NCBI GenBank assembly: GCA_004369045.1
Contig: ML213511.1
Span: 330,182 to 394,181, forward strand
DNA: 64,000 bases
Origin: Heliocybe sulcata
Lineage: Eukaryota > Basidiomycota > Agaricomycetes > Gloeophyllales > Gloeophyllaceae
Direction: 5' to 3'
The notes below the pieces were generated by a model. It made no database searches, was not told the origin of the DNA, and worked only from the letters and a program-made list of their open reading frames with translations. Numbering within the stretch: position 1 is the stretch's first letter; each line of letters starts with the position of its first letter. A program made the translations under genes and the position numbers. Shown in pieces: positions 17,885-64,000 of this stretch.

Positions 17885-18062
17885 TGCTGCCACTTTAAAT
17901 CAGTGGTTGTCCCACTGGTAAATCAGTGGGTAGTGGGAGGCCCTACAAATATAAGCGGGTGAACCACTCAGTGGGTCACCCACTTAATTCAAATGACCAG
18001 AATCCCAGTGGGTAACCCACTGATTTTGCAGAATCAGTGGGTGACCCGCTCAATGTCAGTGG
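17885..18062. repeat. right subterminal repeat array of the CACTG element
   Basis: There are several direct and inverted copies of CAGTGGGTGACCCACT-like palindromes, including AGTGGGTCACCCACTT, AGTGGGTAACCCACTG and AGTGGGTGACCCGCTC. They are separated by AT-rich spacers. It is the counterpart of the array at the left end. Confidence 0.7.
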
Positions 18063-18172
18063 ATTTTCTTCCCACAGTGCTGACGCGCTGACCGAACATC
18101 GATCAGTACGCGCTATGACGCGCCCTGATATCATATTCGCTGGCTCTGACTTCCTCTTCGTTCTACAGGTCC

Positions 18173-32135: not shown

Positions 32136-32138
32136 GGC

Positions 32139-32245
32139 CTTGATGTATGCGACGCCAAGTGCAACTGCGTAGACAAGAAAGCGAAGGCTAGAAGACTCAC
32201 TCAATATCCGTGCAGGAAGGATAGTAGAGCAGATATGAATGTACG
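32139..32245 (-). repeat. second copy of the 28986-29090 fragment
   Basis: See the match at 28986-29090: same orientation, a few substitutions and a short insertion. It directly borders repeat copy B, so the repeats form a nested block. Confidence 0.6.
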
Positions 32246-43978: not shown

Positions 43979-45363
43979 ATGGCCACCATCACCGCTTCGC
44001 CAAGGCCTTTGCGACGTACCAGGACTTTCGAGAGTCTCCAAGACGTTATGCCTTCCGCTGGTCCCTCGAATACGGACAGTCTTGCATCTTCATCATCCGC
44101 AACATCGGCCACGACTTCATCACAACCTTCACACGATGTTGACGCCAATCGAGGCGACGAACCCAAGGCGCGGGGACGTACCTGGACGGTCGACAGTTCG
44201 GAGGACAGCATGCCTCAAGCTGGTCCAAGTAACATCCCATCCTCGTTCGGCTCTCCGCCACAACCATCGACCGCCACTCTGACCGGTGGGCGCGGCTTTG
44301 TTCCAGTACGTCGCACAACATTGCACACATAATATGACTTAATGTCCTGTAGCTACCGGGCCGAGAGCTCATCCGAACAACGCGCTCCCTCATGTGCCCC
44401 GCCTCGCCTCCCGCCCTCGCCACCCTGCCGTCTCCCTCTCAGCTGCCCTACGTCGCCAACCCTGACTCCGGCCCGCCCCCGCCTCGCAAGCACCGATCGC
44501 CCACCTCGCCCACCAACACCGAGCCCCTCGGCTACGATCCCTGCCCGCCGGGCCAGCGGGAGATCATGCAGACGCTGCGCGAGATGGGGATCAAGGTCCG
44601 GGACTTTGAGTATGAGGAGGGGACAAAGGAGCTAAGAAGGGCGTTGATGAGGAGGGAGACGGTTAGTACGGTGGTGTCGGAGGACAATGCGAGTGACGGC
44701 GGGCGGGGCGAGCAAGTGAGTGCTTCGTACACGAATCCTCCTGCATCCACCGAGCTCGGGACGAGTACCGACAATACCGTACGTCCATCGATTCCTCGTA
44801 ACATTAAGCTGAGCGTTTAAGGTTCTTCTTAGACACCCGCATCCCTGAACCTCGAGAAAGGCTCCCTCTTCCAGCGCCGCCGAACCACACCCCTTCCCGC
44901 GCCCACGCACGGAGCCCCGAAATTTGACTCCCCCGATACAATCCCGAAAAGTATTGGTAGTGGTCCTGGCAAGCGGCGCAGACTCGCTGGTACCGTACCC
45001 GCGCCTGCGAAAGGCAAAGATAAGGAGACATCGACGTCCGAGCAGCCCGCGAGGAGTGGGACCGTCGCCTCTTCGAACATGCGCCGTCAAGTCGCTGCTC
45101 GAGCTGGGACCCGGACAGACGCGACGAACGTCGGGAAAGGGAAGGCGAGCGCTGAAACTATCAGCGGGGAGGAAAATCTGGTGTCCAAGAAACGCGGGCG
45201 GGACTCGGACGACGCGTCGTCGAGCAAGCGTCGCAGCGTCGCCGTCTCAAGTCAGCCTCAGCCCCGCGCTGACCAGGCGCAGGGAAAGCGAGTACGCTAC
45301 GTCGCTGGATCTGCTGCACGGCCTCCGTCGACGCATGCGATGACGCTGCGTCGGCGCTCGTAG
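43979..45363 (+). CDS. disordered, basic protein of unknown function
   Basis: The start MATITASPRPLRRTRTFESL continues with DVMPSAGPSNTDSLASSSS. A second copy of the opening motif (RGRTWTVDSSEDSMPQAGPS) shows an internal duplication within the first 85 residues. Exon 2 contains a short ordered patch, LGYDPCPPGQREIMQTLREM with GIKVRDFEYEEGTKELRRAL, which might fold as a small helix-rich module. The C-terminal exon is Lys/Arg/Ser-rich, with bipartite-type nuclear signals (GKRRRLAG, KKRGRDSDDASSSKRRS), and ends HAMTLRRRS. Introns start at about 44308 and 44778. No known domain is recognised. A nuclear protein is inferred. A TATA box at 43923 supports the start. Confidence 0.7.
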
Positions 45364-45883
45364 ACGCGTATGCCATCGGGTTCAGACTTTTATGCCCTCA
45401 CGCGGGCGGAACGTATTGCCAGAAACCTACTTTCCGGGGACGGCCTTATGGCGTCGTAAAGCAATGAACAGGGAGCGACATCGACGGGCTGCGGGAGGCG
45501 GGGAGAGTGGTTAGACGAGAGGCGAGCAGGGAGCCATGGATTCGAGGTCATGATGTCCAGACAGGTGCTTCGCAATGTGTATCTTATACTTACCTGCTTT
45601 GTCGGATGTGTACTTTTACTTACCCAGCTGGAGCGTTCCCACTGTATCGATATCATTAGCGGTATAGCACTAATCAACGCAGCCTTTCATCGGTCGTGTG
45701 TAGTGTCGGCGGTGCCATTCTAAGTAGAGAGCCCTGCGGACTCGACGAGCGAATCGATGCATGGCATGGAGCGGTAATAAGAACAGATAGAGATGGGCTG
45801 TATATATAATGAGTACAAGTGCGATATAAGCGCGAGACGACTATGCATGCCCGAGCCTGCGTATACTAAGCCTCCACTTTCCC
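45364..45883. other. interval between convergent genes
   Basis: 3' UTRs of the disordered-protein gene and P450-2. No supported frame. Confidence 0.45.
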
Positions 45884-48329
45884 CTAGCCTACGAGCGTGA
45901 TCTTCATCGGAAGGTAGGGCGACTTGCCATCCGCAGGTGCACTCGCCGGGCGGGGGACGACAATTATGCTCATGTCCCAGGCGATGTCCTCGGTGAGCTC
46001 GAACTTGAATGTCTCGACGAGCACGGAGAGCACGGTCTCTGTAATTCAAATTCGAAATCAGGCCTGGGGAGGGAAAAGGGGAGGTGCGGATCAAGGAGGG
46101 CGACGTACTCATTTCGAGGAGGGAGAACTTGAAGCCACTAAAATCGCGCAGACAGTCAGTTCAGAAACTGGATGGGGCCACCGGCTTGGGCTCGCAACCG
46201 CCCTCTCGTACGGGATGGGGGCATAATCCTCATACAATAGTAAGGACGGTCACGAGCCTACCGCCGACTAGTCATCGACTTACATGCACCCCCTCGGTCC
46301 GCCCCAGAACGTCATGCTACACCCAAACTCGTCATCAATCCCTCACAGCACCGACGTAGACACGCACATATTCGAATAAACACCCGGGATCTTCGAGTCC
46401 GTAATTTCAGCTGGCAGAGGCGCGAGCCACCGCTCCGGCTTCCACTCGTACGCGTCCGCACCCCAGAGCGCCTTGTTGCGGTTGAGCGACAGGATGCTCG
46501 CGATGACCTTCGAGCCCTTCGGGACGGGGATCTCGGTCACGAGTGTCCCGTCCTGGCCGCGGATGGGCATGGACAGAGGGAGGACGGTGTCGTGCGTCGC
46601 TCTGGTGGGGAGGGTTTTAGTGAGTAGGAGGCGGGGAGGATAAGGATGGCGGAGAGTACCTCCGGTTCTGCATCGTGACGGGCGGATGCCTGGGCAGTAG
46701 AGCGGGTGTCAGCGCGGGAAGAACGGGAAGGTAAGAACGGACGAACAGGCGCAGAGTCTCGCGACATATGGCCTCCAGGTAGGGTATCTTGTCCAGTGTG
46801 TCGTACGTGAACTCGCCCGCTGCGTGCGCTTCGCGTACTTCGTGCCTGAGCTTGTCCTGCACCTCTGGATGCGTGGCGAGCAGATAGAGGATCTTGGAGA
46901 GCGCAGACGAGGTGGTGTCCATGGCGGCGAAGATCAGCGATCTTAATCGCCAATGTAAGCTCGAGTCTCGCGCATAGCGGGCAAGTGAGTCGCGTACGTC
47001 ATCTGCCCCAGAACCTGGGATACGGGCAACCGGTCTTTCTCGGAGGCAGTCAGATTCTCCTTTACTAAACGAGAGACGAACGTTAACGGCCAGCGCGGGG
47101 ACAGCGGCAACAGTTGCAGCGTACGTAGAAGGCTCATGATATCCTTTCCGCCGCCAACCTGTTTCGCGAGTTCGTCATCGCCGCGCTGCAGAGCGGTGAG
47201 TTTCTCCTGGTAAATCTGTTTAGATGTCTTTTCCATAATATCGATCTTTTCCTTGATCTGCTGGATGCCTTTGCTAGGGAGTGTCTCGACCGCCGCCCGT
47301 CGAAAACTGGGAGAACCGATTTTCATGAGCGGCGGGAGAGCGTCGCCAAATACCATGTAGTCCGAAAGAATTGGGCTAAGCCGGATGCGCATCAGGCTGA
47401 TTCAGTACGGTGGATGTGTGCGGCACTTACAATAAGCTTTTGATGGAAGATCCGTACTCGTCAATGCTGCCGTCTTGCATAACATTAAAGCTGTATCCAA
47501 GGCCCGCTCTGCCGATGAGTTCGAGTGCGGTCCTGGTCATCCAGTCGAGCATGTCGATCTCGGTAGCACCGTCCTTTATCTTGTTCGTAATAACGCTCCG
47601 GAGCTGACCAGACATGAGAGCATGTCAATTCACCAATATAACTGCCACTCTACCTCGTATGAGACATCGAGAAATATAGGAACCATATCACGAAGATGCT
47701 TCGCACTGAAAACCGGATTCAGCATCTTGCGCTGCTTCCTGTGTTCCTCGCCTAAGAGAATTCGCACGTCTTTACTGCGCGCTGTTACTAAACAAGACCC
47801 GGATTACCTTCGGCAGCAAGAACCCCATCCCCGAATAACAAGTAGTTGAGTCTTGGTGTCGTGTTTGGCTATCTTGCAATGGAGAGCAATGAAAGGGCTT
47901 ACCGATAGAAAAACCGAGGCTCGTCCCATTGGGGCAGCTCCTTAATGACGATGTGGTACAAAGCTAAAGGATCCGAAATGAATAGTCTCTCCTCCTAAGA
48001 GCATTGCCGTTAGAAATTGACAGTCCATGGATCAAAGTCAAATTACCCCAAGGAAGCCTGCGACTTTGGCGACCGATCCGTATTGTTCCAAAAGTGAGCG
48101 GTGAAAGTCCCATCCGTTACTGTCAAATATCTGCTTCAGATTGCCTACATCGTCCAGCTGTGAGTGCAGGTATGTCAATGTTTTGAACGCTCGCACCTGA
48201 GAGAAGGGAAGCAGAAGCCGGTCCCGGAATATTGTGGAAAGGCCCCCGTACGAACAAGTGTCGCAAGCGGTGCAATAGCAGAAGGCCGATGGCAGACAAA
48301 AGTCCCCATTGGATAAGTGAAAGAGCCAT
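45884..48329 (-). CDS. cytochrome P450 monooxygenase (P450-2), paralogue of P450-1
   Basis: A membrane anchor (MALSLIQWGLLSAIGLLLLH) precedes the hinge HNIPGPASA. Exon by exon it mirrors P450-1: FDSNGWDFHRSLLEQYGSVA, LNYLLFGDGVLAAEG, EEHRKQRKMLNP, LDWMTRTALELIGRAGLGYS, the I-helix AMDTTSSALSKIL, ETLRLF (ExxR), KPERWLAPLP and the heme loop FWGGPRGCMGFKF. It ends YLPMKITLVG. Introns sit at the same sites as in P450-1, showing duplication of a spliced gene at DNA level, not retroposition. All catalytic landmarks are present. Membrane-bound oxidase of unknown substrate. Base composition is more GC-rich in the C-terminal exons than in P450-1. TATATATA at 48384-48391 is about 55 bases upstream. Confidence 0.88.
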
Positions 48330-48383
48330 GATAGCGAAGAACGGGATTTCCTGTCGATTTTAGGTGTCACGGTTGACCCCCGG

Positions 48384-48391
48384 TATATATA
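48384..48391 (-). promoter_or_regulatory. TATA box of P450-2
   Basis: TATATATA on the minus strand, about 55 bases upstream of the ATG at 48329. Confidence 0.5.
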
Positions 48392-49834
48392 CGACGGGCA
48401 CTCGGAAGGCTCGGCCTCCGAGATTTACACAGCAGTCGTGCACATTTCGTGCAGATGCCCGTCCGGGCTAAGGTCTCTGCGTATCTACTGATCACCGGAG
48501 AATGTATGTGCGAGCGCCGAAGTCTTCCACGCCGATCCTAGGGCGACACAGTCGGCACTTGTGCTATGTGACCATGGGCGTGCCGTCAGTTTTACGCAGC
48601 CAAGGTAACATAACCTGGCCTCATTCTCCGGGAGCCAATCGCAAAGCCTTGATAGGAGGAGCCTGCAGCCTATCTGGAGCTATTTCCGTTCTTGTGTAGC
48701 AGTGACTTTATGCTACGCATGAGAGTCCGGGGTGGTTGGAGTAAGCTGGATTCTGGTCAGCATATACCGAAAATTGCGGGAGACAACGTCTTACGTCTGA
48801 GCTTCTCTTCCAGCCCAGTCCCACGCCAGTCCGCGAACAAATCTCGGTGTTCGAACCATATCAAGGCGGCCTTCTTGACGAACTCTCCCAAGAGGTCGGC
48901 CCTGCGACCACGAGCGGGTTGTATTTGATATCAGTATACACCGGTTCGGGCGGCATATATCCAGAAAGGATATTCTTCCGTGTAGTCATTGGCTTCCTCC
49001 TCGGACTTGAATCTTCGAACGCTGGTCGACCTACACTATGACCGCCCATGCAGACAGAATGACTGGGTTCATCGCATTGCTGCCAGCATCATGGCGAGCA
49101 GTGACCGGACAACCTCGGGACTACTTGAGGGTATTCAGTGCGGTGTAGATGCACAGGAAGTATGAGCGCGACAAAGAAGCATTCATAGTCGTCCTCAGGG
49201 ATTTGGAGGATATCGCGTACATCTCAGGGAAAGTTGCACAGCCCTGTCCGTACACGTGTCGCAAGGCTTGATGGGATCTGCGGCCACACCATTGGACTTT
49301 CTGCCAAACTTTCTCAGAAATTCATCGCACTAGAAATAAGTGAAAACTTGCCCTAAGACCTTGTATGTATGGGTTCAAGTCGTGGTGCACGAACGACGCT
49401 TCATCATGATGTAACAGTATATGGACAATCCTCAAGGCAAGGAGCGTCCAGCGACAGCGCTTATATACTTGGGCAGGTACTGGGAGCGCTCGATGGACCG
49501 TATCTGATACAGCGCACAGTGCAACGTTACCTCGCAAGAAGCGCTTCTGGAACCAGGTAGCATATCCTCTCAAAGCGATCGACACAAGCAGTTACATGAG
49601 GATGAACGACATGACCGCACAGGACAGCGCACGATAAGAAGTGCTCGCTCTAGTTACGAGATAGTTCGTAGAGTCCACGAGAGACGACCTATGGGGCCGA
49701 GATGGAATAAAGACATCAGTAAGGTCGGGCTGGCAGTTGCCGAAGCTGTGATTATAATCAGTGGCAAATCAGTGGCACATCATGCGCACCTTTTCCCTAC
49801 CTGCCACATCCGAGCCACCGACATATACCAATCA
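48392..49834. other. intergenic with possible coding remnants
   Basis: A plus-strand frame near 48800-49041 contains FEPYQGGLLDELSQEV and GLYLISVYTGSGGIYPERIF. It looks protein-like but has no start or splice partners I can join. No complete gene is supported. Confidence 0.35.
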
Positions 49835-50698
49835 ATGCATGGGATCACTCACCACCTCTTTACCGCCGCTGATGAGTCCGTCTGGCATCGAAACCCACTG
49901 GACGTGTTCACCCATGCCACAAGTAACAACAACGACCTGATCAACAGGGACGTTCACGGTGCTCGTCTTAACCCATTCGCGGGCGAGGCAAGCCACAGAT
50001 CCAAATGATTCCGGATGCAGTTGACTGACAGTTTAGTTGTTACTTTTACCCTGTAGTAAACGTAACAACAAACCGTTGGGAACCCGTCCGCCACACCACT
50101 GCAAATCAGCATAGTTCTTGGAATAATTTGCTGAGGAGCATCCCAAGGCGAACTACTCCCGAGGATGGGCAAGAATATGAGCTGGCATTGGCCATCATTA
50201 CCAAGGTCGCGTTTGCAGGGCTTGACGAAGTTTGCCTGTGGTGGAGTCGGAGCGGTCGAGGCTAAGAGATCAGCTTCTCAGCTTGCCGAGGGAGGGTGAG
50301 GAGACATACGAAGAGTTGGTTCGTGTCTACATCCAGATCCCGCGGACCCATTGGGAAGACCGCAAGTCCGAGAACTACCGTGAGATGAATGACCAAGACC
50401 TTCCACCCATTTCCTTAACACTTTGGCGGAAAACGAAGGGTATGATGAAAGCTCCTCCACCGTGGTACCTGAAGGTTTTAGTCGCAAGACTGAGAATACA
50501 TACGCCTCAGTAGTGGCTGGACCTCAGAAGAAGCGAGACATCCAGAACCCTTTCTGCTCGATACCGGAGCCGCGGCGAGTCTTCCCTTCCAAGTTTCTTG
50601 AAGATTGGGGGAATGGATGCAGCCGCCAGTCTAGGCAGCCGCCTCTTGTCTTCGTGCCAAAGCGGACAAGTATCCCGTGTGAGTGGGACTGCGAATGA
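49835..50698 (+). pseudogene. orphan family member alpha-1, broken
   Basis: It parallels the intact alpha-2 gene at 55341. The first exon starts MHGITHHLFTAADESVWHR and ends LNPFAGE at a GT donor. The second-exon homology then needs two frame changes. The segment LLSLPREGEETYEELVRVYI with QIPRTHWEDRKSE is in one frame. The tail ENEGYDESSSTVVPEGF, followed by YASVVAGPQKK, is in another, and the stretch before 50232 is in a third. Alpha-2 has the same three parts in a single frame. Two indels in a young tandem copy suggest a pseudogene. Sequencing error cannot be excluded without reads. It lies 375 bases upstream of beta-1, the same order as alpha-2 and beta-2. Confidence 0.5.
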
Positions 50699-50958
50699 GG
50701 GGGTATACTTGACGGAAGCGTCGGCGAATCTTACGGGGACAGGGCGCCACGCTCTGTCGACATAGTTGATAGTGTTATTAGCTTCCATTTCGTTCAACTG
50801 TGAGGGGGATATGAAGTCGGTTCGATATGTCAGGGTGCTTTCAATGACTTGCGGTTATGTTTCAGCCTGCAGAGATTTATCTGTATGGTATTTAGAGTCA
50901 ACACCATGCACGTAGATACCTTTCCAGGTCCAGAAGAGTCCAGGGCGTGGTACCGGCG

Positions 50959-50995
50959 TCGGCATCTGCCGGCGGCGCCGTAAAAGACGAACAAT
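50959..50995 (+). promoter_or_regulatory. shared promoter block of beta-1
   Basis: GGCATCTGCCGGCGGCGCCG followed by TAAAAGACGAACAATG, 93 bases before the ATG. Nearly the same block precedes beta-3, and a diverged one precedes beta-2. The TAAAAG string is at the expected TATA position. Confidence 0.5.
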
Positions 50996-51072
50996 GTGCA
51001 TCTTGATCTATCATCAACTTGACCATCGCCCATCACCTACGAGAATCCATCAGCATTGAATCCTCTTGCAAA

Positions 51073-52282
51073 ATGACATTCCCACTGGTAGTGCACAACA
51101 TGATCAAGTCGGGCCTCGCCAAGACTCTCTTGCGTTTATCTGGTTCCAAGCATGACCTAGCCCCAGCCCCTTCAGCAATGGCAGAGATGCTGCCATCGCA
51201 ATCGCCTGCCGAGCCGGAGAACTTATTCGATAAAGTCCAGGACAAGTATGCTGCCCTCCGGGAGTATATAGATAGATTCATTGGAGGATCGGTGCCAGCA
51301 GAGACAGTAAGCCGTCAGGAGAGGTATAGCAGAGGAAGGTGACTGATCTACGACAATTAGGCATCGATGCCAACGATACGGTTGGTAACACAGTCGGGGG
51401 ACAATGCAATTACTGCACAAAGCACCATCGACGTAATGGATGTCCCGCATTGCTCGACAATGGAGGAGAGTCTCGGATACGACAATACGGGGTCGCCGGG
51501 GATTTTGACCAAGCTGAACGACAAGGTGAGTGGTCCCTAAACGGGTTACCCTTGGAGCTATCAACTAAAAAATTGGTAATTAGCTGTCGCCCTTGACAAA
51601 CAACATTACCAACCTCGGCGAAACCGCACGCGACTGCTCACACCTCGATGGGTCCCAATGGTCCTTGAGTTCGCAGGACGACTTCAGCGCCGTCGAGGAG
51701 CTCACGCACGGAAGGAACATCACTGCTGTCGATGCCACCCTGTCCCCGGTCACCGACGCAGCAGCTGCCCTCGATAGAGACATCTTGCACGAACACGAGC
51801 TTCTCATGCAGGAGATTGCCAACCTCTCGTGCACCGACGATGATCTGGTACTGCGTGAACCGCGCCTTCTGGGACGTATCAGTTTCAACCCGTTCGCCGA
51901 CACTGACGACCGTCAGCCCACGTCGTCGCTTAACTCTGACACATCCTCCCTCTCGCTCCCCACCGTCATCACCCCTGTTAACTATCCTGTGGAGCTCGTA
52001 TACGAGAAGTCCGTTGAGCACCTCGTCAGCGCCGACGACGAGTTCGTGCAGGGCGGACAGCTTCCGCTCGCATCGCGGGTGATTCGCCCCCCTCCAGCCG
52101 TCGCACATCGAAACAAACTGCTCCAGATTCTCAACGAGGGTGTTGCAGAGATCAGTGAAGCTGGTGGGTGGGGCCACACACAAGCACCCTCTTGGTATCC
52201 GCGGGCGCACGAGTTGCCGGCGAGCATTTCCGACAGACGCTCGCTGCCATCGAGAAGCAGGGTCGTCTCTGGCGCGACCTAG
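51073..52282 (+). CDS. orphan family member beta-1, C-terminal frameshift
   Basis: Exons are 51073-51306 (78 codons), 51361-51525 and 51584 onward. Exon 1 ends with YAALREYIDRFIGGSVPAET, closely matching the exon 1 end of beta-2. Exon 2 starts ASMPTIRLVTQ, again as in beta-2. Exon 3 starts LSPLTNNITNLGE and later carries LPLASRVIRPPPAVAHRNKL, followed by LQILNEGVAEI, the best conserved motif of the family. After SWYPRAHELP the homology to beta-3 switches frame. LWRDLAAQNPMMGAMVMGP, the counterpart of FWRELAAPSPTMGTLIM in beta-3, is read only in another frame that stops at about 52374. The in-frame product ends at 52282 with an unrelated tail, so it is truncated or dying. No signal peptide, membrane helix or known domain. 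Confidence 0.6.
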
Positions 52283-55200
52283 CTGCGCAGAATCCGATGA
52301 TGGGCGCTATGGTTATGGGTCCTTGTCCTCCGTTGGGAGGTAAGAGATGTGTCACCGACGTGCACGATGAGTAAATGGTCTGGAGGAGCCGATAGCCAGT
52401 ATATAAACAAAGTTCACTTTCCGTTTTACCGCTCATGGGTTTGTAGTGTACGAGTAGATGATAGAATCGTCGTCGAGTTATTGTGCGGTTTTCTTTGCCT
52501 CGCGTATGATTGGGCGGAGCAGTCGAGGAGGAGAGTGTTCGCGTAGTTCTTTGGTTTCGCTGCTTGCCTATCTCACCGTTTGTATATCCAGTACAAGTCG
52601 CTTGCACAAAGATTCACCTCTGACTGCGTCAGGACCCTCCAACAAAGCCTAATCCGCGTCAAGAGCGAAACACGAGGCATTGCTGTCCCATCAGCGAAGC
52701 TCGGCAGATGCCGAAACAGGACAAGGGCACAACGAGTTCCCGCCACACCGAACCTCTCTTCAGTCCTGCATGTTTATGACCGCTAGAAGTCCTCCGATCC
52801 GCTTCAGAGAGGCGTCGGCCAGGTCCTGAGTGCCTCCTGGGTAGCTTCCTGATCATGCCACCGGTATGTGCAGGTCCTGTGAGTCTCTGGACGGTCGCAT
52901 AACTACCACCACAACTTCCTGATTCATAGCGTCAATAGGTCCAGGACGGTCACAAGCAAGGCTTGAGACGTCTATTTCTCGGATGGAACTGGATATTCAA
53001 CGCTCCGGAACCGGAAGTCATATAGTGGTCGTTTATGAGGACACCAGGCTTCCATTGGGCGCAGAGGCAATCGCAAGCGGCATACGAACGCTCAAGATCA
53101 GGGACGATCGGCAGCCTCTGTGACGCAACAGATAGCAACGACAACAAGCTCGTCCGGTGGACCGTGATTCCACTCCATGAGAGTAGTCTGCAGAGCTGGG
53201 ACGGACATCGGCACGCAAGGCATTAAGACAACTTGATTGCCACCATAAGCATCCCAACTTGGGAAAGCAATGCGAGCGGCTGAGAATGCGAGGGAGATAG
53301 AGAGGCGTCGAAACTATGGCATGGTCTGTGAGTTCATCGTTATGAGTGTCCGATGTCTGAGATGACGCCGGAGTTGTGCGTAGCGTCAACATCAACGCCG
53401 TGAGGATCTGAGCAACACTGGCGTCTGTCTGCTGATGTCGGAGATCCTCGAGAATACGAGGGTGCGTCCTGATACATATCGTCGGCTGAGGAAGTGGACG
53501 TCCGGGGCGAGTCGAGCTGCAGCTATTATCTTGGAGCCGTCAAACAAGATGTGGCGAGGGCGAGTCCTGAATGAGGAGGCAGTCCGTAAGTCTTTGACCT
53601 CTTCTGCAGCTACCCGAACGGGGTTTCTGATGCGCATCGTCATGTCGAACCGGGCCTGCATAGACTCATCCGCGACAGGACCCATCGATTGACTGACTAG
53701 TGCCATCCGAGTATAGACCGTATCCTTGGATATGCGTGCGTATTTCGCGAGTGCGACGACTGGGAGCCAGGCCTGAGGTATCTGGGTGACGGTATCTGGC
53801 TAAGGGCATCCGGGCTCGGTCCACGATGAGAGGTACTACTAAGATATTGATCCAGAGTCATGACGGTCGGTTTACCTGCCTCCAAAAGGCCCCGCGTCGC
53901 TTTACATATAACTTGTAGCAGCAACACGGACAATAGTTTTGGGATCTCGTCCGAGTGAGTACTTTCGTCTACACCGCCCTAATTTCGTCCACTGAAGAAA
54001 GAAAATCAGTTCAGCGTTGTCCAGATTAATGCCTGAGGCAGGAGTCACCGTCCAGGGAGTAGAATTGTGGTGCCTGAGGCTCCACCACCGAGGCAGCCAG
54101 TCATCCCTGTCGCCCAGGTAGGGTTGCCATACTCCGTGTCATATTCTCCCTCCCCGCTATCCCTGATTCTGAGGATGCTTTTTGCAAATTATCCTTCCGT
54201 CGTCTAAGAAGATATGCTGCTTTCCGCTTCCTCGCCTTCCAAAATATTCCACTCATTGTTGTCGCCGGTTCCCGGGCCTCCTATTCTGAGCGGATAGGGA
54301 GATGAAGTCACATAGCTCCTGAAGCGGCTATATATCGCATCCGGTCATCTCGAGGATATGCGATAGCGGAAGATGTTCGAGACACTGGCTTGATGAGAGT
54401 TCACTGGTCCGCTGCGTACCGTTTCACGAAGCATTCAGGGAAAGGTATCAAAAGCGTAAGCGTTCACATCAATAAGCAGAGTCGACCTCGGGAGTCCAGC
54501 GAGAACGTCGAGGATACGCCACAAGCCAGGACTGCCAGACAGCTACAGCTTGAGTCAAAAGGCTCGAGAATGGCATGCTTATGTGGACGCGGCTTGCCAC
54601 GCGACTCCCGCTGTCATTAGGTGATACCCGGAGAACCCATTCAAATTCAATCCCAAATTCAATCCTTGCAGTTCGTGCGTTTGCATATACTGTACCGCCC
54701 TTCGATCCTACAACGTTCGAGTGTATCTGAAGAATTACACAGCGCATTTCAAGGATGGCCGGAGTATATCGCAAATTCCAGTCTTCTCCCACACCAGATC
54801 GGAGTTGGCCGCAGTGGTCCTGGCGGGCACAATTCTTCTACCACTGGTCTGATAGCTAATTTAATTTGGAAGACTCTCAAACCTCTCAGCAAAAGTTCCC
54901 GGTGAGAGACCTACATCAACCAAGTACTTAAGTAATAGCCAGCAGCCTTTGCATAGATGCCACAGACGAGTACCATGATCGGTGCGGGCAGTGTTATAGC
55001 ATAGGCCTCAAGACGGTTACGATATTGATAGTGCTGCCAAGACATATCAGTATATGTCATAGTCCCCCGTCGTACAAATTTAGCCCGACCCATAGTAAAC
55101 TGCGAATGCAGGCAGGGATCACACAAGCAGGTATGGCGGGATAAACCGCATGAGCCCACAGAGCAGCACAGAGATGAAAACAACCAGCCCTGGTCATGGC

Positions 55201-55340
55201 CTAGACAATCCAACAGGCTACAGAGCAAAGGCATCGACAAGGTCCATGCACCGGCTCGTGCCGAAGGCGTGGATGCTAACGGTGGCACGCCCGCCTCTCC
55301 TCCTTCCTGCCACAACTCAGCCACCGACAGTTACCTTTCA
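52283..55340. other. spacer of tandem unit 1; no supported gene
   Basis: It contains a conserved block near 52665-52755 (see the separate repeat entry) and another near 54358-54480 that resembles 59420-59520. Frames such as the minus-strand one at 53392-53706 have no motif and are not conserved between units. An upstream exon of alpha-2 may lie in the last few hundred bases, because its frame is open from 55032. Confidence 0.4.
52665..52755 (+). repeat. conserved block downstream of beta-1 (tandem unit copy 1)
   Basis: GAAACACGAGGCATTG...AAGCTCGGCAGATGCCGAAA...CCGCCACACCG also occurs near 58083-58175 and 62400-62495, each time 280-400 bases after the end of a beta gene. It contains a short hairpin-capable CTCGGCAGATGCCGA. 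Confidence 0.65.
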
Positions 55341-56076
55341 ATGGGGAACATCGCCGAGTCCCTCTTTGCTGCTGGCATAGCTTCTATGCTGCCTCCCGCT
55401 CCATTCTACACATTCACCCATGTCCTCACCGACAACACCACCTTGAGCAATCGGGAATCTCAAGACAACAGGCGAAACCGTCTCAACCCACTGGCAGACG
55501 AGGTAAGCCCAAGAAATGACGTATCCCGGGTGCAGTCATCTAACAATTAGTTATTAGTTTCACCCAACGACAAAACCAATCACTAACCTACTGGGAACCT
55601 TACACCAAACCAGAGCCACTCGCCACGATTCTAAGAATCATGTGCTGGAGCGTGCCACCATGCACAAAAATACAGAGACAGACAAAGAGTATAACGAGGC
55701 ATGCAGCAAAGGCAGGATGGCAGGGCTAGGCGAAAATATACCTCTGGAGGAGTGGCAGTGGCGGAAACTGCGGGGTGAGCTTGACAGCCTTCCGGACAAT
55801 GAAGAGGAAAGGCACCACCAGATATGCCGTTTCTACATCGATATACCTCGTACGCCATGGGAAGACAGAAAGCTTGAAGGTTCTGGGGAGACACTTGACC
55901 CGGACCTGTCGCCAGCATTCTCCAGTCACCACGTGCCTCCTCTCGAGACCTCCGCTGAGGATGAAGAAGTGGACGATGACGATTCGTCAACGGTCGCAGC
56001 GGAGGACTCTGACTACAAGGGACGCCAGTCCTTCGCGGCAGTCGTGGCTGGATCTTTCAAGAAAGAGGGACATTAG
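55341..56076 (+). CDS. orphan family member alpha-2
   Basis: Exon 1 (55341-55502) starts MGNIAESLFAAGIASMLPPA and ends RLNPLADE. The intron is GTAAGCCC...TTATTAG, and exon 2 (55558-56076) reads FHPTTKPITNLLGTLHQTRA. It then encodes EWQWRKLRGELDSLPDNEEE, FYIDIPRTPWEDRK, an acidic DEEVDDDDSS stretch and the end FAAVVAGSFKKEGH. About 226 residues. The second-exon opening (PITNLLG) resembles that of the beta genes (NNITNLGE, NPITDLGL), with the same exon border, so alpha and beta probably share ancestry. The frame is open upstream to 55032 without an ATG, so an extra 5' exon is possible. Soluble and charged, with no recognised domain. It precedes beta-2 by 393 bases on the same strand. Confidence 0.55.
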
Positions 56077-56339
56077 TCGGATAGGCAGAGGAGAGTGCAC
56101 TTTTGGTGTCTGGCGATTCCTGAGGGGCACATCGTTCATGGTGTTACCGACTTCTCTTTCTTTCATTCATGTAAAATAACCATGTATCGTCGAGTCAATA
56201 TCTTCGGGTCGTGGGAGCTTTAGTGATTTCTCGAACATATTCTAGCCCTATAGCGAGCCATCTGTGAGCTTGTTTAGGCTGGATATGATGTAGAAACATA
56301 CCTTTCTAGGCCCAGAACGGCGAGGACCTAGCTCCGACA

Positions 56340-56380
56340 TCGGCTTCTGCCGGCACTGGCCGTTAAAAGGTCGGGCGATG
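56340..56380 (+). promoter_or_regulatory. diverged promoter block of beta-2
   Basis: CGGCTTCTGCCGGCACTGGC followed by CGTTAAAAGG, about 100 bases before the beta-2 ATG. It aligns with the blocks upstream of beta-1 and beta-3. Confidence 0.45.
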
Positions 56381-56469
56381 CGCGTTGTTATCCATCCATC
56401 ATCTTTACCACCGTCCACCACCTTCAACCACAGTTCAGCATCATACTCTCTTGCACGGCATAAGTCTCA

Positions 56470-57823
56470 ATGGCCAACAGCAAGGTGACGCCGGGGCCAG
56501 CGAGGGCATTGCGTCAAGATGCTTCCATGCACGGCCCTGTTCTTGCACACACGGCCGTCCCAGCGATGTTCACTTCTCGGTCGCTCCTCGCGTCGGACAA
56601 TGTGATTGATGAGACCTGCGGCTTCCAGTTCAGCGGAGGGTATGAGTATCGAGACAGAGAATATATAGATAGATTTGAACGAGGCGCAGTGCCGGCAGAG
56701 ACGGTAAGTGGTCGCGAGAGGTAAAGCTGAAGGAGGTGACTGATGTGCGGTGATAAGGCGACAATGCCAACCATAAGGCTGGTGACCCAGCCTCAGAACG
56801 TCCCAGCGGCTCTGCCACACCTCCCAAGCATAGGATATGCTTCCGATCTCCCGGATCACCAGACCATCGAGGAGAAGATCGAGTCCAGTGTTAGCGCGGT
56901 CCAAGATAGGGAGAAGGAACCAGGCCACAAAGTGAGGCCCGGTTACCACAGAGTTCCATTTAACGGTCACTAAAAGATCTGTAATTAGATGGTGCTCCTT
57001 ACAACCAATCCAATTACTGACCTTGGGCTGAGCGCCTCGCATAAACCTGGCACAAATTCGTTCGCTGCCGCACCAGTACTGGAAACTCTTGTACCAACCC
57101 GCACGATGGGACGAGACGCCCGAACAGGTTAACTGGACTGACTCCAGGTCCCTCGAGGAGCTCAGTCGGAAGGGACCCGTCACTATCGTCGAAACTGGGC
57201 CTCGACGAGTTGACGATGCCGTCTCAGTCCTCGATATCGAGCTCTTAGAACAGCACGAGCTCCTGGGGCAGGAGCTGGCGCCACTAGTGTCATGCGTCGA
57301 CGATCGCTTGGCTTCCTGCCCGGTGCAAGGTGAATCCATCACCCCGAAAGCCTTGGCCCAACTTGACGGTCTGCAGCCAGCCGCCGCGAATAACTCAAAC
57401 CTCACTCAGCTGTCGCTCCCTGGCCCCAACACGGTTCCTTCCAAGGGCAAGACCGGCATCCAGGAGAAGTCCGTCAAACCTCCTGTCAGCAATAGTGAGG
57501 AGTCCGTGCCGGAAGGCTACCTCTCGCCCACGGCGCGGGCCACGCTCGCTCCTACGCCTGTTGTTCTCCGTAAGAAGCCCATCCGGATCCTCGACGAGGA
57601 TCTCATTGAGATAACCGAAATTGGCTGGCGAAGCCACTCCGCGCGTATCCCGCAAGAACCCCGCCTCATCACGCTCGCCGCCGTCAGGAGCCGTGCGGCC
57701 CTCTTTCGAGAATGCGCGACGCATTGTCAGGTGATCGGTCAGCAGGTTCTGCCACTCCTCCTCCCCTGGGACAAGGCAGAATTAAAGTTAGTGCGAGAGC
57801 GCGCCAGGAGGAACCGCGACTAG
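56470..57823 (+). CDS. orphan family member beta-2
   Basis: Exon 1 (56470-56703, 78 codons as in beta-1) ends REYIDRFERGAVPAET. After a 54 bp intron exon 2 (56758-56931) opens ATMPTIRLVTQPQNV. The acceptor used by the paralogues (at 56988) leads into a frame that stops soon. An acceptor CACCAG at 57076 instead gives YWKLLYQPARWDETPEQVNW, an open frame to 57823. So either the splice site has moved or a frameshift exists. Exon 3 includes LLEQHELLGQELAPL (beta-1: ILHEHELLMQEIANL) and VVLRKKPIRILDEDLIEITE. The C-terminal part is AVRSRAALFRECATHCQ...WDKAELKLVRERARRNRD. About 384 residues with the alternative acceptor. No known domain, signal peptide or membrane segment. Sequence is strongly diverged while gene structure is kept. 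Confidence 0.6.
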
Positions 57824-58082
57824 GTTGAGTGTCCTGGCGTCTACTCGAGTATCACAAGAGACTTCGAATCTCCTTTCCACCTTCAGCCAATTCTCTGTCT
57901 GAGTTTCTGTTTCTTTGTACAATCAGGATTGCCGAAGTGAGGAGGAGGAGAGCGATGTTGTATTCCTTTAGCTTTGCCTGTCTGTACATTTCGCATGCCG
58001 TATATTCCAAATGAATTTGACGGCCCATGGGTTCCTCTTTCCCACCACGCGATGAATCTCAGAAGAACCCGGTCCGCTGCAA

Positions 58083-58175
58083 GACCGAAACACGAGGCAT
58101 TTGCGGTCCATCGCTCGGCAGATGCCGAAGCAGTACAAGCGCGAAATGAGTTCCCGCCACACCGCACATCTCATT
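58083..58175 (+). repeat. conserved block downstream of beta-2 (copy 2)
   Basis: GAAACACGAGGCATTTG...CTCGGCAGATGCCGAAG...CCGCCACACCG. See the copy near 52665. Confidence 0.65.
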
Positions 58176-60856
58176 CGTCCTCTGAGTCCATGGATGCCAG
58201 AAATCGCCTGAAATGTTACGTAGCGCTTCGCAGGTAGGTCTCCATGGATATGCTGTCTGTGCCACCGGCAATTGCAGCTGCAGTAAATCGCTCAGTCCTC
58301 GTATCTGCACTGCATCTGTCCAAACGACGAGATTATCGGCTATCCTGGACTTGCAATTCGAGGTCACAGAAGGTGACGAAGCTCAAAATCCTCGTTCGAG
58401 GCATTTGTTAGCGCGAGCTCTAGGGATCCATCCGCGCAGACCTGGCCACGAGTCTCAACACGACCTAAAGATGAGGGAAGATCCCCCGCTTAACAAGTCG
58501 GATAGAGAGATTGAGTAATTGGGCAACAGCGAGGGTGCAACTGTTCGGACTTCGCCACAATGTGGGACGATGATTGGCAGGATGGCAATCACTATCCTCA
58601 CATTGACGGCTACCGAGCCAGTATTTCGGATAGCCGGGCACAGAGGTAAGAGGGCGGCTGTAGAAGACCGACCGTATCCAACCAGGACCTGAGCCCATAC
58701 CAAGTTTACTGGGACGACAAGTACCCGAGATCTGGGCCAGAGGGGCAATAGGGCGACCAGCTTAGCGAGTCAGGGTAGGGAAGAGGCAAGAAACAGCTGC
58801 CTCCTAAAGCCATCGGCGTACCAGCCAGTACTGTGCCTCGAGCAGCAGGCGGTGGGTCCCTTTCCCACCGCTTTCAGCTACGCCCTGACGATAATTATCT
58901 GAGAACCGATATGACAGTCCGATTCGTAATCCACAGAGAGCGCCAGACTGCGTCGATTCGAGGCGAGGTGTATCCGAGTGATGGTTCGACAGGAACCCTG
59001 TGGCTGAGCTGCACTCGCCACGGTTTTGCCGAGGCAAGTACATCGGCGGGTATCATCCGTCCCTGCTTTCTGGAAACAGAGGTCCCCTTCAGTGTAGTCC
59101 AAGCGGACGTGCTAGACGACTGCTACTGCCCACAATGTTACAGTCCAGAGTGGAGCAGGCAGCCGGCATCAGAATGCCTTACGAAGGTTCAGGCTAGCCG
59201 TACGGCTCGCATCTTCTGGAGCATTCATCACTGAACGTTGGTCCTGGGTTTACATGACACTTACCGCAACCCATCGTCCTTCTATCCGAGCAAAACTTCC
59301 ACTCAGCGCTCCGGCAAGTGTGTGGAATAGCAACTGGGACGAAGTCGTGAGATGAAACCTATGGATTCCTGTAAAGATTTTCCACAGAGTCCCGTCGTTT
59401 CCAATGGGTGCGATACCATAAGATGTTCGAAGGCTTGGATTATGAGGTGTTCACTGTTCACCGTGTCCGCAGCGTGTCGTCGCACAAAAAGACACTGAAA
59501 ATATACGCGTTCATTACGATTTTCCGAGTCCAGTGTCGAGTTCTGACATGTTAGTCAAGTAGGAGCGAACAAGGGACGCGACGGAGTCGCAGTCAAGTCC
59601 TTCAGACTCCAGAGAACAGGCGAGGATTTCCGTTTGTGGACGCAGCTCCGCCACGCGACGATGATGCGATCAATGCATTAATTCACAAATTTAAAGCGTC
59701 AGTACTTCAGTCGCCCTCTGTGATGCCACTCTGTGCTTTACCACTCAGCCGATGGAGTTTGTACGCCTCTCATACAATGAAGGCAGCATCCTGGCAAGGG
59801 CGCAAAACCAATGGAAATTAAAAAGGTACTGGTTTCTTCCGCTAAATTAGCCACAATTGACCTTGCCGCCACATTGGGTCTTGATGCGTCTTAGAGCTTC
59901 CTCAAGGAGCCTCAATTCCAGCAAGCCCGATATCGAGCTTCAATTTCGTTTGCAAGGTGTTGGTCTGTGATCTGAAGCCATTCGATGTTCTGCGAGCCTA
60001 ATGATATAAGAAGCATACATTATATGACAGGTACTTCGACGTATGAGTACAAGGTACTGCCAGCCTTCCAGCGCAGAGGAAATTTGGACAGAACAGGAGA
60101 ACCGATAACAGGGAGACGCACAACACCTAGAATGTTGAGGGTGCGTCCCAACGAGTTGAAAAGACCTCGATACGGGCTTAGGGACCAGACGTAATTGATG
60201 CAGGCATGGCCAGGCATCCCGAGATGATAATTGGTGGCGCATCGGTACGATCGCTCTTTTCTTGCCTCGTGCCACAGCTCGGCCACTAGAGCGTACTGTT
60301 TCGATGGCTGAAGTCATCCTCGATAACTTGGTATCGTCGAAGCTTCGGTGCCTCCGCTGGACCGATCAACCCGTGCCACCACCGAAGACCAACCGAAGAC
60401 AGCGGGTTGCTATACGATAGGGGCCCATGCCACTGGAGAACAGGCTGATAGTCCGGCGTAGCAGTCGCTCATGGACCGAATTAGGAAGGTTAGTCGTTAT
60501 CTCTGCCCTGAGGACAGCACAACCGCGAAGCGAAGACACGGTAATCGGCTCCCATGGGTTTAACCATGGTGTAGGCGGAGGAGTCCATGGATGGAGCTTG
60601 ATCAACGAAGGGAGATTGTACCTTTCAGCGTAGCGCAGAGCTGCAATCAGTCAAAATATCGTAGTATTCCCAGAAGTTCGTTAAATGAGCATACATCGGC
60701 GGCGTGGCGTCGGGCGGATATGCCGCCCCCGAATTCTGCAGGAAGTCCTTCCAGCGTTCTAGGGAGGTATCTGCAGGATATCAGCGTAGATTGCACGCGT
60801 GGAGGAAACCCTTTAAGGCCCAAGGTAAGCGAAGGCCAGGGTCTCGGCCTCGGCAT

Positions 60857-60895
60857 CTGCCGGCGGTGACCATAAAAGACGAACAATGCGCGTAC
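60857..60895 (+). promoter_or_regulatory. shared promoter block of beta-3
   Basis: GGCATCTGCCGGCGGTGACC followed by ATAAAAGACGAACAATG, 78 bases before the ATG. It is almost identical to the beta-1 block although the proteins differ greatly. Confidence 0.55.
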
Positions 60896-60950
60896 TCACC
60901 TGTCTTCAACTTGAACCTCATCCATCGTCCACGACACTTAGTGCTTAGCC

Positions 60951-62129
60951 ATGGTTTTGCAATCGCTGGGATCTCTAAAGGATAAGCAGTTGAAATTGGG
61001 CTTCATGAAGACCCAAGACCGCTTGCTGCCGTCCAAGGGTGCCACCGTGGAAGCTCCAGCCCCTGCTGCCGCGACGCGGCCACCCCATGCGCCCGACGCG
61101 TCGAGTAACCCCAAAAGCGACCAAGGAATGGAGGAGAGAGGCAATCGCGAGACAATCGCGCGCGCCGATCGCACCGATCAAGCGTCCGCAGCCGTGGAAC
61201 AGGTAAGTCGTCGCGAGTCATGTGGCAGATCAAGACGGCTAATTCAGAGGGCTTAGTCGGAGACATCAACCGTACAGGCCGTGTCACAGCTACAAGACAG
61301 CGCGACCTACGCGTCGAGCGCCCCTCGCTTCATTCACATGTTTGACAGACTCTATGGTCTGACTACCGACGAATTGAACGAGTATTGGGCCATGGGCACC
61401 TCAGCCGAGAGGAATATTACCACGCTAAACCAAATGGTGAGTGTCACGGCGACATCTGGCTGCTCGTATTCCAACTAAAGGATCTGTCATTAGATGCGTG
61501 CCATAATAACACATCAAATTACAGACCTTCCGGCACAGTCCGCTCTGAATCCGCCTAGCGAGTGGGTCGCAACCAGGTTTGCTGCTCCGAGGCCAAAGCG
61601 ATGGGAGGAGAGACCAGAGTGGTGGGACTGCGATAAAATCTGCTATGTCGAAGCTGCGCAGCCCAACATCTCAGATGAACCCGAGGCATCCCCTCTCTCG
61701 CTTCCTGCCGTCGTTACTCCTCCCGACGCCGACATGTTCCTCGCCCAGAAGAAGCCCGCCGAGTTTCTCGTCAGCGACGACGACGAGATCGTCTCTGGCG
61801 GGTGCCTACCGCTCGAGGCTCGGGTCATTCGGCCCCCTACGCCTGTCGCTCACCGCCAGAAACTGCTCCGGATTCTGAACGGGCCGCTCGCAGAGATACC
61901 CCGAGCTAGCGCGCCAGCGCCCGCCTGGTACTCGATGCCATACACCAAACCGGTCAGCGCTGTCGGCAAGAAGACGACCCTCCTTGCGCCCGCTTCGATA
62001 GAGTATCGCGGCCGCTTCTGGCGCGAGCTTGCTGCGCCGAGTCCGACGATGGGCACACTCATCATGCCCCTCGCATATCGATGGGAGGAGGAGGACATGG
62101 CCGCGTTGCGGGAGGTGAAGCTCGAGTAA
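60951..62129 (+). CDS. orphan family member beta-3 (intact)
   Basis: Exons 60951-61202, 61257-61436 and 61494-62129 join in phase 0 with clean GT-AG borders, giving about 355 residues. Intron 1 is 54 bp, the same length as in beta-1 and beta-2. The N-terminus (MVLQSLGSLKDKQLKLGFMK) and exon 1 end are not recognisably like the paralogues. Exon 2 has APRFIHMFDRLYGLTTDELN. Exon 3 opens MRAIITHQITDLP and carries LVSDDDEIVSGGCLPLEARV, IRPPTPVAHRQKLLRILN and FWRELAAPSPTMGTLIMPLA, the C-terminal core shared with beta-1. It ends MAALREVKLE. Acidic and soluble, no known domain. It is the cleanest member and the best model for the family. Confidence 0.65.
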
Positions 62130-64000
62130 ACCTTGAAGCTGGAATGAAAGAATAGAAGTATAAATTTCTCTCGTTCCACCTTGTACGATAGCTGATTGGA
62201 GGATAGTCGTCGGGTTGTGCTGATTTTCTTTGTATCTCTTGTATGAATAGGATGGCGAGTTTGGGAAGAGGAGTGACCTCGTATTTCTTGTTGCTGCTTG
62301 TACTTATATCCCGCACTGTTTCCAACTTCGCAATGTATTGCTTGCACTATGGGAGTGAAAGTTTCATTACCACGACCAACCTGTCAGATGTGCTCCAGAA
62401 CGAAACACGAGGCACTGTAGTCCATCATTCGAAGCTCGGCGAGTGCCGAAACCCGCGCAAGGACGCGATGAGCCGCCGCCACACCGCCCCGTTCCTTCGT
62501 CCTGCACGTCCAGATAGACCAGACACCCTTGATCAGCTACAGCATATTTGATTGCCAGCTACTGAGCACTCAGCAGGCAGGTCCCAGACCATGTCGCGTC
62601 CGTGCCACCGGCGCCTGCAGCGTCCGTAAGTCTGATGCCAGTCGCGTCTGTACCGCATCCTCGAATATACTCACCGCGTCTGCAGAAATTGGGTTGTCGG
62701 AAGGGAGCCGGATGACAAGGCCAGCTGTACTAGACACCGACTGACCCTCGAACATGGCCAATGACGTGAAAACCATGGTAAGTAAGAGCACCATTGGTCC
62801 AATCGGCGAGAAGCGAGGCAGGAGTAGCAGTACTTCAAGATCGGAGAAGATCGAGAGGTCGGAAGACCTTGCGAAGATGATGGCGATGTTTCCTTGAAAT
62901 TGGTGAAATTGGATGGAGGGCCCTCGGGGGCTCCGCGTGCCGGCACGAGAAGACAAGGTTGTGCACGAGCTTGGGACAATGGTGACCTGAAGGTTCATCT
63001 AGAAAAGGTGCGTCAAGGTACAAATTACCCCACTCACGCAACCTAAGGTGCTGTGGGCAGTATGAAGAGAGCGCAGGTAAGATAGCGCCAAAATCAGGGA
63101 ATGCAGAGAGTCGAGAACACTGGGAGCATTCGTGAGTTTACTCTCCCAGGTGCTATGTTTGACATCAGCCGGTAATCTCCAGACGCAGTGCGAGTTCTCG
63201 CCTGCCCGCCGCATCGGTTTTCAGCAAGGAAGCGTCCGCAGGTGAGTGTTCGAATCTCTCATCGCCGGCGCGACTACCAGGAGGAGAGGCGACCGGTGAG
63301 TGGGTCCCACTCGCTCTGTCCAACACTGACGAAGGGGACTCAACAGTCGACAGACGATGGCCGTGAACGAGTGAAGCTAGGATCGTAGCGTCCAGGGTTT
63401 CAACAGCGTCGTGGACAGCACCCGTCAGAACCCCTGAGGAAGAAGCATGCTAGCTGGCACATTCCCGTCTCGTATATCCGTCAGCTGATTCCCCTCTCGA
63501 ATTCGAGAGGATACATTTCGTAAGCCATTCTCGCTGCGCCCGAGCAGAGATCCTGAGGATAGCTCCCTCATTCCCCAAGAGCCTCCGCCGGCAGCTCTGG
63601 CCCGCCCGCAGGTCCAGACACCGTGAAGATGCGAGATGGAACTGACACCCTCAGCTCATTTCCAAGAGCTCCGAGCGACGTACAGGGCATGCAATAGCCG
63701 AAGATGGTGGAAGTATAGTATTATCCGGCGAGTGTCGTGCAGCGCCTGTCTCATCCCACCAGAGTATTGAGGAGACTAAAGCCATAGCCGTCCAGATACT
63801 TTTCTATGTTCGGTACACTGTCACTCAAACCATTCGAAGAGGAGACGGGAGAGCCCTGCAGATGGGGAGAGCGATGGACCAGCTGTCGGGTGATGGGGAG
63901 AGTTGGACACGGTGCTTGCGGAGGGTAAGCCCGCACAACCGCGCGCCTTTTCGGGAAGTGTCCCGAAATAGCCCGGGTACCTTGATCTTGATGTAATCTC
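62130..64000. other. downstream flank of the array; one doubtful minus-strand frame
   Basis: It contains the third conserved block (62400-62495). A minus-strand frame at 62570-62998 (142 codons from ATG) includes MVLLLTMVFTSLAMFEG, which resembles a signal or membrane segment, then FEDAVQTRLASDLRTLQAPV. A decayed match (DAVQIRGLSDLL) lies in unit 2 near 58270-58330. It could be a small gene or chance. The rest to the window end has no supported frame. Confidence 0.3.
62400..62495 (+). repeat. conserved block downstream of beta-3 (copy 3)
   Basis: GAAACACGAGGCACTG...AAGCTCGGCGAGTGCCGAAA...CCGCCACACCG. The hairpin stem changes on both sides (GGCAGATGCC to GGCGAGTGCC), keeping some pairing. Confidence 0.65.

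What the first reader, a model, noticed from the sequence alone, without database searches (positions are those of the whole stretch)
49835..62129. Tandem array of an unrecognised two-type gene family (alpha/beta)
Three beta genes and two alpha genes lie on the same strand in about 12 kb, in repeated units of roughly 5.4 and 4.5 kb. The betas share exon number, a 54 bp intron 1, exon-1 length (78 codons in two of them), flanking blocks and a C-terminal motif RVIRPPxxVAHRxKLLxILN. Their proteins otherwise differ strongly. Alpha and beta share the start of their last exon (xITNL/xITDL), suggesting common origin. I recognise no known domain. Strong protein divergence on a conserved gene frame suggests fast evolution, as seen in conflict, recognition or host-interaction families. 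That role is inference.
Basis: partly seen in the sequence, partly recalled or inferred. Interest (0 to 1): 0.85.

Follow-up and report, generated by a model that had tools for sequence, protein, structure and literature searches.

The report
Fungal gene-pair array with PABP-binding motif
A fungal chromosome carries an unnamed, reshuffled cluster of eleven gene units whose smaller gene probably docks onto the cell's poly(A)-binding protein, a hub of mRNA translation, while its larger partner is of unknown function.

Summary
The window shows one edge of a 71-kb array (C9 379.8-451.0 kb of a 31.6-Mb fungal genome): 11 beta genes of three subtypes, 7 recognisable alphas, inferred alpha relics before the other 4 betas, 4 units inverted. 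Genome searches found no member elsewhere. The genes code for protein: dN/dS 0.37-0.64 in ten bootstrapped pairs; 11 of 14 coding gaps keep frame against 4 of 37 outside. Several copies are broken, including two of three window betas and one of two window alphas. 'No known domain' is partly wrong: alpha carries a canonical PAM2 motif (xxLNxxAxEFxP) built across its splice junction, and the genome encodes an MLLE domain, its known receptor, as in poly(A)-binding protein. Pfam scores for it are below cut-off. Beta has no known domain and lacks the motif's key Phe. A CGG-N6-CCG element is concentrated at gene starts and behind betas. Units look mosaic, with beta exon 3 apparently exchanged between otherwise similar units. 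Best reading: a birth-and-death array of co-regulated pairs, alpha docking on PABP, beta a divergent partner. Conflict or recognition is inference; no positive selection was seen.

The parts
49835..50699 (+). alpha-1 pseudogene (a1_60): exon 1 49835-49987, donor now GC, last-exon acceptor AG changed at about 50042-50043, frameshift and stop downstream
   Evidence: comparison with the intact copy a1_130; exon ends read by eye
50960..50971 (+). CGG-N6-CCG element in beta-1 promoter, 21 bp upstream of TAAAAG
51073..52374 (+). beta-1 (b1_61): exons 51073-51306, 51361-51525, 51584-52279 as read; frameshift late in exon 3 against copy b1_128
   Evidence: outer end by eye
52702..52713 (+). CGG-N6-CCG in the conserved block 3' of beta-1
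55252..55263 (+). CGG-N6-CCG upstream of alpha-2
55341..56076 (+). alpha-2 (a2_65), intact, 226 aa: exons 55341-55502 and 55558-56076; acidic protein, net charge -16
55482..55566 (+). PAM2 motif LNPLADE|FHP of alpha-2, built across the intron (55482-55502 plus 55558-55566)
   Evidence: consensus quoted in PMC9249222
56341..56362 (+). two overlapping CGG-N6-CCG elements in beta-2 promoter
56470..57823 (+). beta-2 (b2_67): exons 56470-56703, 56758-56931, 56989-57823; 2-bp gap near 57097 against four other copies shifts the frame, so probably a pseudogene
58116..58127 (+). CGG-N6-CCG in the conserved block 3' of beta-2
60260..60640 (+). inferred alpha relic in front of beta-3 (no protein match; alignment with the same place in front of b3_123, which matches the alpha-2 5' region by BLASTN)
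60851..60862 (+). CGG-N6-CCG in beta-3 promoter
60951..62129 (+). beta-3 (b3_71), intact, 355 aa: exons 60951-61202, 61257-61436, 61494-62129
62437..62448 (+). CGG-N6-CCG in the conserved block 3' of beta-3

Best explanation
A single-locus, birth-and-death array of co-regulated gene pairs in a fungus, probably an agaricomycete. Alpha is a small acidic protein whose PAM2 motif docks on the MLLE domain of the cell's own poly(A)-binding protein, so that alpha acts on translation or stability of mRNAs, much as small acidic PABP-interacting proteins do. Beta is a diverged relative that has lost or never had PAM2 and acts as partner or parallel effector. Both genes are switched on together through a CGG-N6-CCG site, probably by a Zn2Cys6 factor. 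Copies diversify by duplication, inversion and segment exchange, mainly of beta exon 3. Shown here: array, gene structure, coding constraint, PAM2 sequence and its conservation, a host MLLE, shared elements, mosaic identity pattern. Inferred: PABP binding, effect on mRNA, partnership of alpha and beta, the transcription factor, exchange as the cause of the mosaic.
For: The alphas fit the published PAM2 consensus xxLNxxAxEFxP, Phe included (PMC9249222, passages). PF07145 is the only Pfam match in N-terminal pieces (92-104 aa) of 5 of 5 alphas given, of 7 (E 0.002 to 0.19). Of 7 recognisable alphas 6 keep the motif, one with Phe for the first Leu and one followed at once by a stop; the seventh has lost its splice acceptor. 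In 4 intact alphas pN/pS is 0.35 in the 14-codon motif block, 0.80 before and 0.69 after (block chosen after seeing the alignment). The strict motif occurs 5 times in six frames of the genome, 0 in the reversed control. The genome has one MLLE match, with KITGMLLE. Coding constraint. Element: 37 of 38 CGGC-N4-GCCG sites in 154 kb lie in the array. Mosaic: b2_80 and b2_95 are 0.91 identical in alpha and 0.90 in the far 3' flank but 0.72 over intron 2 and exon 3; b2_95 and b2_109 have no difference in the 234 nt of exon 1.
Against: All PAM2 scores are below Pfam's cut-off of 20 bits (best 18.1). With whole proteins, only one of the two alphas scanned matched PAM2 (a1_130, E 0.084) and window alpha-2 matched nothing up to E 1. 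A 41-aa open frame at window 16754 scores 18.8 bits, so such scores alone do not prove function. The motif was noticed in a scan of all Pfam. No binding or expression data. Four of 11 units have no recognisable alpha, so not every beta needs one. Models of the last exons alone are too poor to show a fold (pLDDT 56 and 42). A 26-residue piece with the motif resembles apolipoprotein repeats (E 6e-10; profile E 0.0066), which I judge a composition effect.
Confidence: 0.45

Rival explanations
1. Recognition or conflict locus (allorecognition, spore-killing or other genomic conflict): paired genes under diversification, with exon 3 of beta as exchanged specificity cassette.
For: Tandem and inverted paralogues; mosaic b2 units in which exon 3 disagrees with its flanks; between subtypes the proteins differ more than the promoters and 3' blocks, by eye.
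Against: No dN/dS above 1 in any of ten pairs; one of 26 blocks of 30 codons reaches 1.02. Units with only a working beta, and one with only a working alpha, lie side by side, awkward for a strict toxin-antidote pair. No clear membrane or signal segment by hydropathy in 7 proteins. No population data.
Confidence: 0.2
2. Ordinary lineage-specific duplicated regulators of translation or mRNA fate, with no conflict, now in part decaying. This overlaps with the best explanation, so the odds need not sum to one.
For: Purifying selection on the tested pairs; many broken copies; conserved promoter element and PAM2.
Against: dN/dS is high for such genes (general knowledge), and the exon 3 pattern is not explained.
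Confidence: 0.25
3. PAM2 in alpha is a chance or unrelated motif; alpha and beta are lineage-specific, perhaps disordered proteins of another function.
For: Sub-threshold Pfam scores, no match in whole alpha-2, an equal score in a short unrelated open frame; a P450 gene duplicated inside the array hints at other neighbourhoods.
Against: Motif kept in 6 of 7 alphas, with synonymous change around it; strict form rare in the genome.
Confidence: 0.15

Closest known systems
Small acidic PABP-interacting proteins (animal Paip2; plant CID1/ERD15 class)
   Same: Short protein with PAM2 motif and acidic character; PMC4574140 describes PAM2 plus an acidic segment for both (passages)
   Different: No sequence family match; a paired, multi-copy array; PAM2 split by an intron; binding not shown
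Fungal PAM2 proteins Upa1 and Upa2 of endosomal mRNA transport
   Same: PAM2 motif and a fungal Pab1 MLLE partner (PMC9249222, passages)
   Different: No other Pfam domain in the two whole alphas scanned; multi-copy
Fungal mating-type loci (homeodomain and STE3)
   Same: Multi-copy, fast-diverging paired genes in a fungus (recalled)
   Different: STE3 and homeobox matches lie on other contigs, none in the array
Fungal spore-killer and allorecognition families
   Same: Clustered, divergent, partly pseudogenised paralogues (recalled likeness)
   Different: No shared domain found; no selection signature or genetic data

Membership tests
PAM2-containing MLLE ligands (alpha) | xxLNxxAxEFxP consensus with Phe | tested here: met
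   LNPLADEFHP, LNPHADEFRP, LNPHADEFHP, LNPFAGEFYP; one copy FNPHADEFRP; consensus from PMC9249222
PAM2-containing MLLE ligands (alpha) | score over Pfam PF07145 cut-off (20 bits) | tested here: not met
   11.9 to 18.1 bits in N-terminal pieces of 5 of 5 alphas; whole proteins 13.0 bits in one of two; for comparison 2 of 7 matches in the own genome pass
PAM2-containing MLLE ligands (alpha) | an MLLE partner in the same cell | tested here: met
   PF00658 at C3:454158, KITGMLLE
PAM2-containing MLLE ligands (alpha) | direct binding to MLLE | not testable with these tools
   needs a binding assay
PAM2-containing MLLE ligands (beta) | Phe at the junction position | tested here: not met
   Leu or Met follows the junction in 11 of 11 betas
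Paip2/CID1-like small acidic PABP ligands | PAM2 plus acidic character in a small protein | tested here: met
   220-279 aa, net charge -13 to -22 in 4 of 4 intact alphas; binding by the acidic part not tested
Paip2/CID1-like small acidic PABP ligands | sequence homology beyond PAM2 | tested here: not met
   no other Pfam match up to E 1 in the two whole alphas scanned
Mating-type locus | homeodomain or STE3 genes at the locus | tested here: not met
   14 STE3 matches on C11 and C16, 2 homeobox matches on C16 and C1
Toxin-antidote meiotic driver | killing of non-carriers | not testable with these tools
   needs crosses

The most novel reading that the evidence does not exclude
The array is a recognition or conflict system that works through the cell's own mRNA machinery: alpha anchors the pair on PABP, beta exon 3 is an exchangeable specificity cassette, and combinations of units set compatibility or killing. 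I recall no PABP-anchored recognition locus in fungi; this was not searched for exhaustively.
Probability: 0.1. Interest if true: 0.88.

Novelty: new variant of a known kind. Interest (0 to 1): 0.52.

Why it matters
If alpha binds PABP, this would be a whole gene array, not a single conserved factor, devoted to the PABP hub, with a co-regulated partner that seems to be remodelled by exon exchange. That would make a fast-evolving interface with translation testable in a fungus, and would give a first biochemical handle to a family for which Pfam and PDB sequence searches gave no full-length relative here.

Tried and rejected
Mating-type locus: rejected, STE3 and homeobox matches lie elsewhere. 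Transposable element: rejected as main reading, since DNA and protein searches find the family only in this array. Reading the CGG-N6-CCG pairs as terminal repeats around beta is less likely because 6 of 7 alphas also have one upstream; of these six, three have a TATAAG close behind, by eye. Apolipoprotein likeness: judged composition. Viral origin: 37 and 55 pattern matches in viral contigs, none confirmed. PDB by sequence: no match for beta up to E 10. Rfam: 0 matches at gathering level in window 44000-64000. Third gene behind the 3' element: no ORF shared by the subtypes seen by eye in the alignment; left open. The last-exon models were too poor for a fold search, so none was run. Pfam matches to transposase, DUF1129 and DUF7456 in betas (E 0.08-0.25) were judged chance. 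Literature: two searches aimed at such arrays returned no paper at all; three on PAM2 returned 344 (15 listed), 6 and 1 papers, none of the listed titles about such an array; one on zinc cluster factors returned 2. Of PMC9249222, PMC4574140, PMC5559640 and PMC4105795 I saw passages only. No statistical recombination test was run.
Full report
Where it lies. The window is C9:330182-394181 of a 31,634,890-base, 51-contig genome. STE3 (14 matches), KN-type homeobox (2) and DUF6533 (28) matches point to a fungus, probably an agaricomycete; that these families mark basidiomycetes is recalled. The species is not known to me.

Extent. I fetched C9:320182-474181 around the window and searched it with last exons of the window genes. 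The array runs from about C9 379.8 to 451.0 kb, 71 kb, so only its left edge is in the window. It holds 11 betas: 2 of type b1, 5 of type b2, 4 of type b3. It holds 7 recognisable alphas, one in each b1 and b2 unit. In front of the b3 genes I infer alpha relics: in front of b3_123 the alpha-2 5' region matches by BLASTN (73%), and the other three align with that place; no alpha protein match lies there. The right-hand four units (two b2, one b3, one b1) are on the minus strand. Whole-genome searches with one beta and one alpha last exon found 12 and 9 matches, all in this stretch; the tool scores only the best candidates. Three runs of N, of 3145, 345 and 75 bases, lie in the array, so copy number is a lower bound.

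Gene structure and coding evidence. Beta has three coding exons with phase-0 introns, intron 1 of 53-54 bp and intron 2 of 56-58 bp in 11 of 11 models. The models were picked by script within set lengths and without RNA data; one search lists other acceptors for b3. Alpha has two exons and an intron of 55-57 bp in the 4 intact copies. Intact by these models: b1_128, b2_80, b2_95, b2_109, b2_117, b3_71, b3_123 (7 of 11 betas) and a2_65, a2_110, a2_118, a1_130 (4 of 7 alphas). b3_88 and b3_100 end 36 codons early at the same place; b1_61 and b2_67 are frameshifted; a1_60, a2_79 and a2_93 are broken. Three of 11 units have both genes intact. Assembly error cannot be excluded for single indels. 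In the b2 units 11 of 14 distinct gaps in coding sequence are multiples of three, against 4 of 37 outside (Fisher P 8e-6; gaps within about 250 columns of either alignment end were left out). In ten chosen pairs dN/dS is 0.37-0.64, every bootstrap upper limit below 1. The 13 within-subtype beta pairs (b2_67 left out) give 0.32-0.61 over the whole gene and 0.27-0.72 for parts of it; the six alpha pairs give 0.47-0.65. Of 26 blocks of 30 codons the range is 0.26 to 1.02. So the family is protein-coding and under weak purifying selection; I see no positive selection.

Alpha carries PAM2. The conserved core of the 4 intact alphas is RR(S/N)R(L/F)NPxA(D/G)EFxP. It is built across the splice junction, LNPxADE ending exon 1 and FxP starting exon 2. 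This is the PAM2 consensus xxLNxxAxEFxP, whose Phe is described as the major determinant of binding to MLLE domains (PMC9249222, passages). In N-terminal pieces of five alphas PF07145 is the only Pfam match, with E 0.002, 0.0068, 0.022, 0.041 and 0.19, all under the cut-off. In whole proteins it was found in one of two (a1_130, E 0.084; none in alpha-2). As a yardstick the same model finds 7 places in the own genome, 2 over the cut-off; translations show SLNPHAPPFVF, FSVNAPAFVP and LNVAAPEFKP in three, and in two others my frame missed it. One of the 7 is a 41-aa open frame in this window, at 16754, with 18.8 bits: a warning that such scores alone prove little. The strict motif as a DNA pattern has 5 matches in the genome and 0 in the reversed control; alphas cannot match it because the intron splits them. 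Six of the 7 alphas keep the motif, a2_79 with a stop close behind it; a1_60 in the window lost the acceptor that builds it. Over the 4 intact alphas the block has pN/pS 0.35 against 0.80 upstream and 0.69 downstream. The genome has one MLLE match, with KITGMLLE. Alpha is acidic, net charge -13 to -22 in 4 of 4, with no clear hydrophobic leader in a simple hydropathy scan.

Beta. Three whole betas gave only Pfam matches of E 0.08-0.25, judged chance; no PDB sequence match for the last-exon profile; no usable model (last exon, three window sequences, pLDDT 42). The start of its last exon resembles that of alpha at DNA level beyond permutations (0 of 300 overall, b1 and b2; 1 of 300 for b3; 6 of 7 alphas used). 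Where alpha has Phe, 11 of 11 betas have Leu or Met. Whole last exons show no relation by profile comparison. So a common origin of this junction is likely, and of the whole genes possible.

Shared elements. CGG-N6-CCG occurs 73 times in the 154 kb, 57 of them in the array; the narrower CGGC-N4-GCCG occurs 38 times, 37 in the array. By place, sorted by me: 6 upstream of alphas (all but a1_60), 1 at the relic before b3_123, 11 at beta promoters, 5 more overlapping the b2 promoter sites, 11 about 300 bp behind the beta stops, 3 behind b3 units. The form CGGCNYCTGCCGGC, made from the beta promoters, has 17 matches in the genome: the 11 betas, by construction, and 6 elsewhere, against 3 for the reversed control. 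The block behind beta is conserved in 11 of 11 units. Zn2Cys6 factors typically recognise pairs of CGG triplets (PMC5559640, passages); that one acts here is inference.

Mosaic units. In the b2 group, b2_80 and b2_95 are 0.908 identical in alpha, 0.924 in the spacer, 0.825 in the near and 0.897 in the far 3' flank, but 0.719 over intron 2 and exon 3. There b2_80 matches b2_117 (0.928) and b2_95 matches b2_109 (0.867). b2_95 and b2_109 have no difference in the 234 nt of exon 1 but are 0.744-0.746 identical in the 3' flanks. Segment exchange between units, with exon 3 the main part, is the simplest account; no formal recombination test was run. The b3 group shows a milder form.

Mechanism and limits. 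I take alpha as a PABP-docking small acidic protein and beta as its co-regulated, diversified partner. Docking, effect on mRNAs and alpha-beta partnership are inferred. Units with only one working gene (b2_80, b2_95 and the b3 units; a2_65 with a broken beta) speak against an obligate pair within a unit, though other units could supply the partner. No relatives from other species were on hand: the own genome has no relatives in the search set and viral contigs gave none. Novelty is judged only against Pfam, PDB sequences, Rfam, viral contigs and the held papers.

Noticed in passing
window 16754-16798: A 41-aa open frame on the + strand matches PAM2 (18.8 bits; LSPNANSFTPSV read by eye); chance or an exon of another PAM2 gene.
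   Followed up: partly
window 46264-48833 and C9:431245-433800: A gene next to the array has an 85% identical copy inside the array between two b2 units. A piece of the inner copy matches P450 (E 3e-22); the one window piece scanned matched nothing.
   Followed up: partly
window 10585-12823 and 29886-32141: A 2.3-kb stretch is repeated in inverted orientation at 87% identity; possibly a mobile element.
   Followed up: no
window 63919-64000: 82 bases are repeated inverted at 97.6% on the far side of a 3145-base N run just after the window; possible hairpin or assembly artefact.
   Followed up: no
window 52650-52900, 58090-58300, 62390-62620: The block behind each beta, with CGG-N6-CCG and in most copies a further GTGCC-ACC-GGCAC-like palindrome about 150 bp on, is conserved over 11 units; promoter of an unseen transcript, antisense promoter and boundary element are open.
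   Followed up: partly
window 15600-15740 and 17900-18080: Short repeats of an AGTGGGTGACCCAC-like unit (seen).
   Followed up: no
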